Shown in pieces: positions 45,193 to 50,472 of a stretch of DNA of 64,000 nucleotides. The DNA is from Anaeromyxobacter dehalogenans 2CP-1 (lineage in GTDB: Bacteria; Myxococcota; Myxococcia; Myxococcales; Anaeromyxobacteraceae): positions 3,454,501 through 3,518,500 of the forward strand of contig NC_011891.1 in NCBI RefSeq assembly GCF_000022145.1, given 5' to 3'. A model generated the notes under the pieces. That model did no database searches. It saw only the letters and a list, made by a program, of their open reading frames with translations, and was not told the origin of the DNA. Position 1 is the first letter of the stretch. Each line of letters opens with the position of its first letter. Made by a program: the position numbers and the translations under genes.

Positions 45193-48100
45193 ATGCCGGA
45201 GGCGGTGTCGCTGGGGCGGGTGGCGGTGCTGGATCGGAGCGAGGCGGGCCGGCGCGCGGTGCGCGCGGTCCGCGAGCTGGCGCGCGAGGGGAAGTCGGCG
45301 CTGGCCGTGGCGGTCCACGCGCCGCGCGACCGGCGCCTGCCGTTCGTCCGCGAGGCGGACGCCTCCGTCGAGGTGGAGGGCTCGCCGGAGCTGGCCCTGC
45401 ACGTGGCCGGCGCGGAGGCCGCCTGGCTCGGCCCCGCCCCGCTGGCGGAGCGGGCCGCGTTCGCCGAGGCCTGCGAGCAGCTCGGCGTGCTGTTCCTCGG
45501 CCCGTCCTCGTCGGTGCTCGAGCGCGTGCGCGCGCCCGAGGGGCTCGCCGCGATCGCGGCCGAGGTGGGCGTGCCGCTGGCCGCCGCCGGCGGGGCCGAT
45601 CCCGCCGCGCGGCTGCTCGAGGTGGTTGTGGCGCGCGACCGGTCCGGCGAGGCGCAGGCGGTCGGGGTCGGCGACGCCTCGCTGCGGCTCGCGGACGTGG
45701 CGGTGCTGGCCGAGTCGCCCTCGCCGGCGCTCGGCGCGCAGGAGGACGCGCGCGCCCGCATGCTCGGGCTGGCGATCGCGGCGGCGGCCCGCTGGGTGGG
45801 CATCGCGAGCGTGGAGCTGCTGCTCGACCCGGCCACCCGCCGGCTGGTGCTCGCCGGGGTCGACGCCTTCCCGCGCTCGGCTGCCGCGATCGAGGCCGCC
45901 GCCGGCGTGGACCTGGTGCGGCAGGCGGTCCGGCTCGCGGCGGGCGCGGCGCTGCGCCCGCTGCCGGCGGCGCGCGGCTTCGCGGTCGCGGCCCGGCTGC
46001 TGGCGCGGGACCCGGAGGCTCCGCAGCCGGCGACCGCGCCCGGACGCCTGGAGCGGCTGCGGCTGCCGTCGGACCCGGACGTGCACGCCGAGGCGGCGGT
46101 CGAGGAGGGGGACGAGGCGCGCGGCGGCGCCGAGCCCATGGCCACCATCGTCGCGCTCGGCACCGACCGCGGCCGCGCCCTGGGGCGCCTCGCCCAGGCG
46201 CTCTCCGACACCGACGCGCTGGCCCGCGGGAGCGGCTCCAGCAAGGCCTGGCTGCTGGCGCTCCTGGCCCGCACCGAGGTGCGCGCCGGGACCGCCGGGG
46301 TGGGCTTCCTCCCTCGCCTCGCCGCGGCCCGCGAACGGCTGGTCGCGCCAAGCCCCGAGGTGGCGCTGCTCGCCGCGGCGCTGGAGTCCTACGAGCTCGA
46401 GCTGGACCTGGAGCGCGCGCGCTTCCTGGCGGAGGCGCGCCGCGGGCGGCCGCGGGTCGGCCCCTCGTCCGGCCGCGCGGTGGAGCTGCTCCACGCGGGC
46501 GAGCGACACCGCCTGGAGGTGCGCCAGACCGGTCCGGACGCCTACCGCGTCTCGCCCGCGGGCGGCGCGCCGGTGGACGTGAAGGTCGATCGCCTGGCCC
46601 GGGGCGAGCGCCGCCTGGCGTGGGGCGGCCGGCGCGCGCGCGTGCTCTCGGCGGTGGACGGCACCCGACACCTGGTGGACGTGGACGGGGTCCCGCACCT
46701 CGTCACCCGGGATCCGGGCGGCGTGATCACCTCTCCCCTGCCCGGCATGGTGGTGGCGCTGCCGGTGGTGCCCGGCCAGCGCGTCGCCGCGGGCGAGCCG
46801 GTCGCCCGCGTCGAGTCGATGAAGGTCGAGCTGGCGGTGCCCGCGCCGACGGCCGGCGTGGTGCGCGAGGTGCTGGCGGTGCCGAACGGCCAGGTGGACG
46901 CGGGCGCGCCGCTGCTGCGCCTCGATCCCGAGGGAGAGGGCCCGCCCGCGGCGCCCGGCGCACCGCTCGCGCTCGGCGGCGAGCCGCCGCCGGAGCCGTC
47001 CACCGCGCACGAGCGGTACCTGGCCGGCCTCCGCGAGCTGAACCGCCTGCTGCTCGGGTTCGACCTCTCCGACGCCGACGCGCGGGCGCTCGCCACCGGC
47101 TGGCGCGACCGCGCCGCCGGCGTCGCCCCGGAGGACCCGGGCGCGCTGCGCGAGGAGGAGCGCGCGCTCGCCGCGTTCGGCGACGTGCAGGCGCTGTTCT
47201 CGCGCGGCCGCGGCCCCTCCGCCGCCGCCGACGCGCCGCCGCCGCTGGAGGAGCTCTGGCGCTACCTCCACGAGCCGGAGGCTCGCGGCGAGGGGCTGAC
47301 CCCCGGCTTCCTGGCGCAGCTCCGCCGCGCGCTCGCGCACTACAACGTCTCGCTCGACGCCCCCGGGCGCGAGCTCGAGCTGGCGCTGCTGCGGATCCAG
47401 AAGGCGCACGACCGGGCCGAGGCGCCGCTCGCCGCGGTGCTGGGCATCCTGGAGCGGCGCCTGGCCGGCGACGGCGTGCCGCCCGGCCTGGAGGACGCGG
47501 GCGCGCGCGAGCTGCTCGACCGGCTGGCCGCGGTGGGCCAGGAGCGCTTCCCCGCGCTGGGCGACCTCGCCCGCGAGCTGCGCTACCGCCGCTTCGAGAA
47601 GCCCGAGCTGGACCAGGTCCGGGCGGCGGTGTACGCGCAGGCCGAGGCCGACCTCGCCGAGCTGGCACGCGCCGAGGGGACCGCGCGCGAGACGCTGGTG
47701 TCGCGGCTCATCGCCTGCCCGCAGCCGCTCAGCACGCTCATGCTGGCGAGGATGGCGCGGGCGAAGCCCGAGTTCCGCCGGCTGCTCGCCCAGACGCTCA
47801 CGCGCCGCTACTACCGCCACCGCGCCACCGCGCCGGCGACCGTCGAGGAGGTGGACGGGGTCGCCTGCACGCTGACCGAGTACGCGGCGGAGTCGCGGCG
47901 CATCCAGCTCGTGGCGGCGTTCGCGCCGGCCGCCGAGCTGGCCCGCGCGGCCGCCGCCGCGGCCCGGCTCGCCGAGCGCACGCCGGAGGGCGCCCAGACC
48001 TCGGTGGACCTGTACCTCTGGCGCGACGGGGCGGGCGGCGATCCCGACGCGATCGCGGCCGAGCTGCGCGCCGCGCTCTCTCAGGCCGGCTTCCGCCGGC

Positions 48101-50472: not shown

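What the first reader, a model, noticed from the sequence alone, without database searches (positions are those of the whole stretch)
45193..50472. 1759-residue carboxylase whose biotin carboxylase domain has lost its ATP loop and catalytic residues
The protein keeps a biotin-attachment site (Lys544) and a full carboxyltransferase half, but the front domain, although recognisably biotin-carboxylase-like, lacks the glycine-rich loop and the catalytic LEMN-RLQVEH segment. Such a protein would need biotin carboxylated by another enzyme, or work as a decarboxylase/transcarboxylase. Single-chain eukaryotic-like layout is rare in bacteria.
Basis: partly seen in the sequence, partly recalled or inferred. 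Interest (0 to 1): 0.8.

Follow-up and report, generated by a model that had tools for sequence, protein, structure and literature searches.

The report
Acetyl-CoA carboxylase with dead ATP half
A family of soil bacteria keeps a giant one-piece carboxylase whose ATP-burning front half has lost its working parts while the rest is kept almost unchanged, so it probably moves carboxyl groups between CoA compounds without ATP or borrows the ATP step from another enzyme.

Summary
The 1759-residue protein at 45193-50472 belongs to the bacterial "homodimeric multidomain ACC" family (SACE_4237 of Saccharopolyspora), order BC-BT-BCCP-central-CT. Its biotin carboxylase (BC) half has lost the ATP-grasp lid, the glycine loop and the catalytic residues. 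Of residues that 85 intact relatives hold at >=97%, it keeps 172/174 in CT, 10/10 in BCCP, 27/28 in the central region, but only 43/103 in BC. All readable Anaeromyxobacteraceae copies share this loss and form one clade whose nearest relative has an intact BC. At equal CT divergence only the BC has lost constraint (52% v 82% identity), yet it still evolves as protein. Similar losses occurred apart in a Thermoanaerobaculia MAG and another Myxococcota MAG. The genome also holds canonical Acc genes, four intact BCs and a biotin ligase, but no Na+-pump decarboxylase subunit. Most likely an ATP-independent biotin-dependent acyl-CoA transcarboxylase (about 0.5); main rival: carboxylation in trans by another BC (about 0.33). 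New variant of a known kind.

The parts
45193..50472 (+). CDS, 1759-aa single-chain multidomain carboxylase with inactivated biotin carboxylase domain (stop included)
   Evidence: orthologues in 11 of 24 genomes of the GTDB family, this one included
45214..45519 (+). BC N-terminal subdomain (residues 8-109), fold retained
   Evidence: Pfam PF00289 E 7.9e-15; AF2 model superposes on BC
45568..45612 (+). Deletion junction (residues about 126-140, GVPLAAAGGADPAAR): the ATP-grasp lid with K159 and the glycine-rich loop is missing; about 70 residues net shortening against E. coli BC
   Evidence: CPSase_L_D2 matched only from profile position 94; alignment; model 6-379 spans E. coli BC 1-446
45613..45957 (+). 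ATP-grasp remnant (residues 141-255)
   Evidence: PF02786 partial match
45853..45882 (+). Position of the lost EMNTRLQVEH catalytic segment (residues 221-230, AGVDAFPRSA)
45991..46311 (+). BC C-terminal subdomain (residues 267-373), degraded
   Evidence: PF02785 28.2 bits, below cut-off 32.4
46333..46716 (+). BT-like linker domain (residues about 381-508), constraint unchanged
   Evidence: AF2 fold; rates
46726..46923 (+). Biotin carboxyl carrier domain (residues 512-577)
   Evidence: PF00364 E 2.1e-12; 10/10 conserved columns kept
46822..46824 (+). Biotin attachment codon Lys544 (ESMKVE)
   Evidence: invariant
47113..48867 (+). Central region (residues about 641-1225), eukaryotic-ACC type
   Evidence: PF08326 at 971-1127, E 2.8e-8; 27/28 conserved columns kept
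48985..50436 (+). Carboxyltransferase domain (residues 1265-1748), apparently intact
   Evidence: PF01039 E 2.3e-31; 172/174 conserved columns kept over residues 1226-1750

Best explanation
This is a bacterial multidomain acetyl/propionyl-CoA carboxylase (SACE_4237 family) whose biotin carboxylase half became a non-catalytic scaffold. Shown by sequence: no ATP lid, glycine loop or catalytic residues; intact BCCP lysine, central region and CT. Inferred: the biotin on Lys544 is charged and discharged only at the CT site, so the enzyme works without ATP, taking a carboxyl from one acyl-CoA (for example malonyl- or methylmalonyl-CoA) and passing it to another (acetyl- or propionyl-CoA), that is as an acyl-CoA transcarboxylase, with slow decarboxylation as a side or net reaction. 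The dead BC keeps the architecture that positions BT, BCCP and CT. That its own BC is inactive is about 0.95 likely; the ATP-independent function is about 0.5.
For: BC catalytic residues are absent in this protein and in L109, L111-L115, L117, L118 and L119N. BC keeps 43/103 conserved columns against CT 172/174, BCCP 10/10, central 27/28. At CT identity 0.83 the degenerate pairs have BC identity 0.52 v 0.82 in intact pairs, while BT and central do not differ. The BC/CT branch-length ratio is 3.77 in the family v 1.45 and 1.04 in intact clades, every one of 40 bootstraps giving at least 1.9-fold. The BC remnant is still under purifying selection (codon-position differences 8/5/62) and its fold is predicted retained, Z 45.5 to E. 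coli BC over 362 residues. The BCCP evolves about 1.4-1.7 times faster than in intact clades, as expected if one of its two docking partners is gone, but the bootstraps are not decisive. Comparable BC losses arose separately at least twice, by parsimony three times; one of these (L124) overlaps by 4 bp a cassette of MaoC hydratase, HpcH lyase and CoA-transferase genes, a CoA-thioester catabolic setting. No dedicated BC is encoded beside the gene. The nearest characterised relative accepts both acetyl- and propionyl-CoA (PMC6491548), so a single CT could exchange a carboxyl between the two pairs.
Against: No substrate, activity or biotinylation was measured. Stand-alone BCs are present and could charge this BCCP. 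No published acyl-CoA:acyl-CoA transcarboxylase of this architecture was found. The gene stands alone and its neighbours change between species, so genomic context gives no substrate.
Confidence: 0.5

Rival explanations
1. The biotin on Lys544 is carboxylated in trans by another biotin carboxylase of the cell (AccC, the PCC-type BC, or the 992-aa enzyme), and the CT then makes malonyl- or methylmalonyl-CoA.
For: The genome encodes four intact BCs: AccC beside AccB, a BC beside a separate BCCP in the PCC-like cluster, a 992-aa BC-BCCP protein and pyruvate carboxylase. Two of them are stand-alone BCs that act on a separate carrier by design. One biotin ligase is present.
Against: No BC gene was found beside this gene in the species looked at; each stand-alone BC has its own carrier nearby; BCCP constraint appears slightly relaxed rather than kept (not decisive).
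Confidence: 0.33
2. A pseudoenzyme or regulatory/scaffold protein, for example binding acyl-CoA or titrating biotin ligase, without net carboxyl transfer.
For: BC is clearly dead.
Against: CT keeps 172 of 174 conserved columns and the biotin lysine is invariant, which is the pattern of a working biotin-CT pair.
Confidence: 0.1
3. A gene in decay, the BC being the first part to go.
For: BC evolves 2.6-3.7 times faster relative to CT than in intact clades; the MAG copy L119 is split over frames.
Against: Kept in all 8 near-complete genomes of the genus and 3 of other genera, with third-position dominated change in every domain.
Confidence: 0.04
4. The BC is still ATP-dependent, with catalytic residues in unusual positions.
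For: The fold core and R338 are retained.
Against: No lid, no lysines K116/K159/K238, no QVEH; none of these is replaced consistently across the family.
Confidence: 0.03

Closest known systems
SACE_4237-type homodimeric multidomain acyl-CoA carboxylase (Saccharopolyspora erythraea; PMC6491548)
   Same: Same domain order, central region and CT; 45-49% identity to actinobacterial members sampled here
   Different: SACE_4237 carboxylates acetyl- and propionyl-CoA as a 400 kDa homodimer; here the BC lid, glycine loop and catalytic residues are lost
Eukaryotic acetyl-CoA carboxylase (yeast 5csl/5csk, human ACC1)
   Same: Best sequence match in the PDB, over BC C-terminal part, BCCP, central and CT stretches; BC-BT-BCCP model aligns with 5csl
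   Different: Active BC, longer chain (over 2000 residues)
Na+-translocating methylmalonyl-CoA/oxaloacetate decarboxylases
   Same: CT plus biotin, no BC step
   Different: Need a membrane beta subunit (OAD_beta), which this genome lacks
Propionibacterial-type transcarboxylase and the Giardia transcarboxylase (Giardia enzyme cited in PMC3199775; properties otherwise from general knowledge)
   Same: Biotin carrier and CT working without ATP
   Different: Propionibacterial enzyme uses a pyruvate-side CT as second partner; no such domain was found in this protein
[quoted passage not shown]
   Same: Bacterial single-chain carboxylase with related BC fold
   Different: About 1000 aa in the structure, hexameric, different domain order and no ACC central region according to PMC6491548

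Membership tests
SACE_4237-type multidomain ACC | One chain with BC, BT, BCCP, ACC central region and CT in that order | tested here: met
SACE_4237-type multidomain ACC | CT groups with bacterial multidomain ACCs | tested here: met
   CT tree: clade of 12 degenerate rows inside the family, L028 nearest with support 92
SACE_4237-type multidomain ACC | BC with ATP-grasp lid and catalytic residues | tested here: not met
SACE_4237-type multidomain ACC | Biotin-accepting lysine in BCCP | tested here: met
   Lys544 by sequence; biotinylation itself not measured
SACE_4237-type multidomain ACC | ATP-dependent carboxylation of acetyl- and propionyl-CoA as a homodimer | not testable with these tools
   needs purified protein
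Na+-translocating biotin decarboxylase | Membrane beta subunit (OAD_beta) | tested here: not met
   PF03977 absent from the complete genome; the search rings in 2 of 14 control genomes
Transcarboxylase of the propionibacterial type | Pyruvate/oxaloacetate-side CT domain | tested here: not met
   only the CoA-type Carboxyl_trans domain is found in the protein; other subunits elsewhere in the genome were not looked for
[quoted passage not shown]
   ACC_central present

The most novel reading that the evidence does not exclude
The ACC scaffold has been turned, at least twice and probably three times, into an ATP-independent biotin-dependent acyl-CoA:acyl-CoA transcarboxylase that equilibrates malonyl-CoA and methylmalonyl-CoA pools, the former BC serving only as a structural part.
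Probability: 0.4. Interest if true: 0.8.

Novelty: new variant of a known kind. Interest (0 to 1): 0.6.

Why it matters
Biotin carboxylases are textbook two-step machines in which ATP drives the first step. A conserved natural version that dropped that step but kept everything else would show whether the CT half has a use of its own, would add an unrecorded way of moving carboxyl groups between CoA pools, and gives a clean natural control for how BC, BCCP and CT depend on one another. It also warns that automatic annotation as "acetyl-CoA carboxylase" is misleading for these proteins.

Tried and rejected
(1) A single-sequence AF2 run on residues 1-407 gave pLDDT 35.7 and was not used. (2) Whole-protein genome-search queries failed repeatedly; a 251-aa CT fragment worked. 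(3) A sequencing error or frameshift as the cause of the missing lid: rejected, since all readable orthologues share it. (4) Plasmid or phage mobility: the near-full-length plasmid relatives are distant actinobacterial genes, those read having intact BC; no phage match. (5) Na+-pump decarboxylase: beta subunit absent. (6) A linked PKS/PUFA-type partner as in the intact relatives: not found beside the Anaeromyxobacteraceae copies; the genome's one PS-DH protein is unlinked and only about 30% identical to the cassette PKS. (7) Conserved neighbours: only in the closest species. (8) Literature search for an inactive BC in such a protein found nothing relevant, in an open-access library only. (9) A search for more degenerate copies around the Thermoanaerobaculia MAG could not be run.

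Full report
Observation. The reading frame at 45193-50472 (+) encodes 1759 residues. Pfam gives a BC N-terminal domain (8-109), an ATP-grasp match that begins only at profile position 94 (residues 141-255), a sub-threshold BC C-terminal domain (267-373), a biotinyl domain (512-577), an ACC central region (971-1127) and a CoA-type carboxyltransferase (1265-1748). The antisense strand is open for 1862 codons too, so openness is no evidence; codon-position statistics are used instead.

What family it is. The closest solved sequences are yeast and fungal acetyl-CoA carboxylases. One member, SACE_4237 of Saccharopolyspora erythraea, was shown to be an essential homodimeric acetyl/propionyl-CoA carboxylase (PMC6491548). 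The layout is therefore not rare in bacteria.

The lesion. Aligned to E. coli AccC and to the relatives, nearly all relatives with a complete BC keep the catalytic set, whereas this protein lacks K116, K159, the G163-G168 loop, H209, Q233, H236, K238, E288, N290, R292 and QVE 294-296; about 70 residues net (the ATP lid) are deleted. Among columns at least 97% conserved in 85 intact relatives it keeps 172/174 in CT, 10/10 in BCCP, 27/28 in the central region and 43/103 in BC.

It is conserved in the family. The gene is present in all 8 near-complete genomes of the genus (99% complete or more) and in 3 genomes of two other genera of the GTDB family, and was not found in the sampled genomes of three further genera. 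Every copy whose front part could be read has the same lesion; a related copy in another family of the order (G052) has it too, in a frame-broken MAG sequence. The CT tree puts the 12 copies in one clade (SH-aLRT 100) with L028, a MAG protein with an intact BC, nearest (support 92).

Relaxed, not dead. At CT identity 0.80-0.86, degenerate pairs have BC identity 0.52 against 0.82 in intact pairs, with BT and central unchanged. On a fixed tree the BC/CT rate ratio is 3.77 in the family against 1.45 (Acidobacteria) and 1.04 (Actinobacteria), with 40 of 40 bootstraps at least 1.9-fold; the stem shows 7.3-fold. The remnant is still selected as protein: between this genome and a near relative (L109) the BC differs at codon positions 8/5/62. 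The AF2 model from a 43-row alignment has pLDDT 91.7 and superposes on E. coli BC over 362 residues, rmsd 2.1 A, Z 45.5; because the alignment is dominated by intact relatives, the model may lean toward a normal BC fold.

Convergence. Two further degenerate copies fall elsewhere in the tree: L035 (Thermoanaerobaculia MAG; the contig begins inside the BC, so its lid cannot be judged) and L124 (a Myxococcota MAG, G039, that also has an intact paralogue, L122). Parsimony needs three changes; strongly supported branches force two. L124 overlaps by 4 bp a cassette of MaoC/mesaconyl-CoA-hydratase-like, HpcH lyase-like and two class III CoA-transferase genes. Intact relatives of Acidobacteria, Myxococcota and some Actinobacteria instead sit in a PKS (KR-DH, PfaA-like) / ACC / phosphopantetheinyl transferase cassette, like the pfaA-ACC-pfaE order noted for Koribacter (PMC3098273).

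Cellular setting. The genome (5,029,329 bp, one contig; an Anaeromyxobacter, from memory of the size probably A. dehalogenans 2CP-1, not verified) also encodes AccB-AccC, separate AccA- and AccD-like CTs (assigned from the parts of the CT profile they cover), a PCC-like cluster with separate BC and BCCP, a 992-aa BC-BCCP protein next to a CT, and pyruvate carboxylase, all four BCs with intact catalytic residues, plus one biotin ligase and no OAD_beta. So bulk malonyl-CoA supply need not depend on this protein, and it is not a Na+-pump decarboxylase of the known kind.

Mechanism. Shown: BC lesion, conservation of CT/BCCP, selection pattern; predicted: the fold. Inferred: with its own ATP step gone, the biotin can be charged only at the CT from a carboxylated acyl-CoA (transcarboxylation, with decarboxylation possible), or by another BC in trans. 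The first is preferred (about 0.5) because no BC is linked to the gene, the BCCP is if anything relaxed as if it had lost a partner (not decisive), and a convergent copy lies in a CoA-ester catabolic operon; the second (about 0.33) is fully compatible with the genome. Only assays can decide.

Noticed in passing
L010-L039 (most), L044, L084, L006; for example L012:5102-14341: Intact multidomain ACCs of Acidobacteria, Myxococcota and some Actinobacteria lie between a PfaA-like PKS gene and a phosphopantetheinyl transferase gene, suggesting dedicated malonyl-CoA supply for secondary lipids.
   Followed up: partly
L132:92-10107 (-): A second BC-degenerate multidomain ACC (L124) in an apparent operon with MaoC/mesaconyl-CoA hydratase-like, HpcH lyase-like and two CoA-transferase III genes; the lid length is kept but residues are changed.
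   Followed up: partly
L035:1-4869: Thermoanaerobaculia MAG copy with a degenerate BC, 5' end cut by the contig.
   Followed up: partly
L036:8001-13532; L027 and L029: Partial lesions in otherwise intact relatives: L036 has changes at the positions of H209, H236, K238 and Q294; L027/L029 have Trp for R292.
   Followed up: no
G039 (L120, L122, L124, L130): One Myxococcota MAG carries four multidomain ACC genes, at least one intact and one degenerate.
   Followed up: partly
L097:6066-9044 (+): A 992-aa BC-BCCP protein of the same genome, long and with a divergent BC but all catalytic residues, next to a CT gene (L097:4124-6025).
   Followed up: no
window 44875-50463 (-): 1862-codon open frame antisense to the gene, an effect of 78% GC, probably not a gene.
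   Followed up: partly
window 43267-44927 (+): Two small c-type cytochrome genes 5' of the carboxylase; found beside it only in the closest species.
   Followed up: partly
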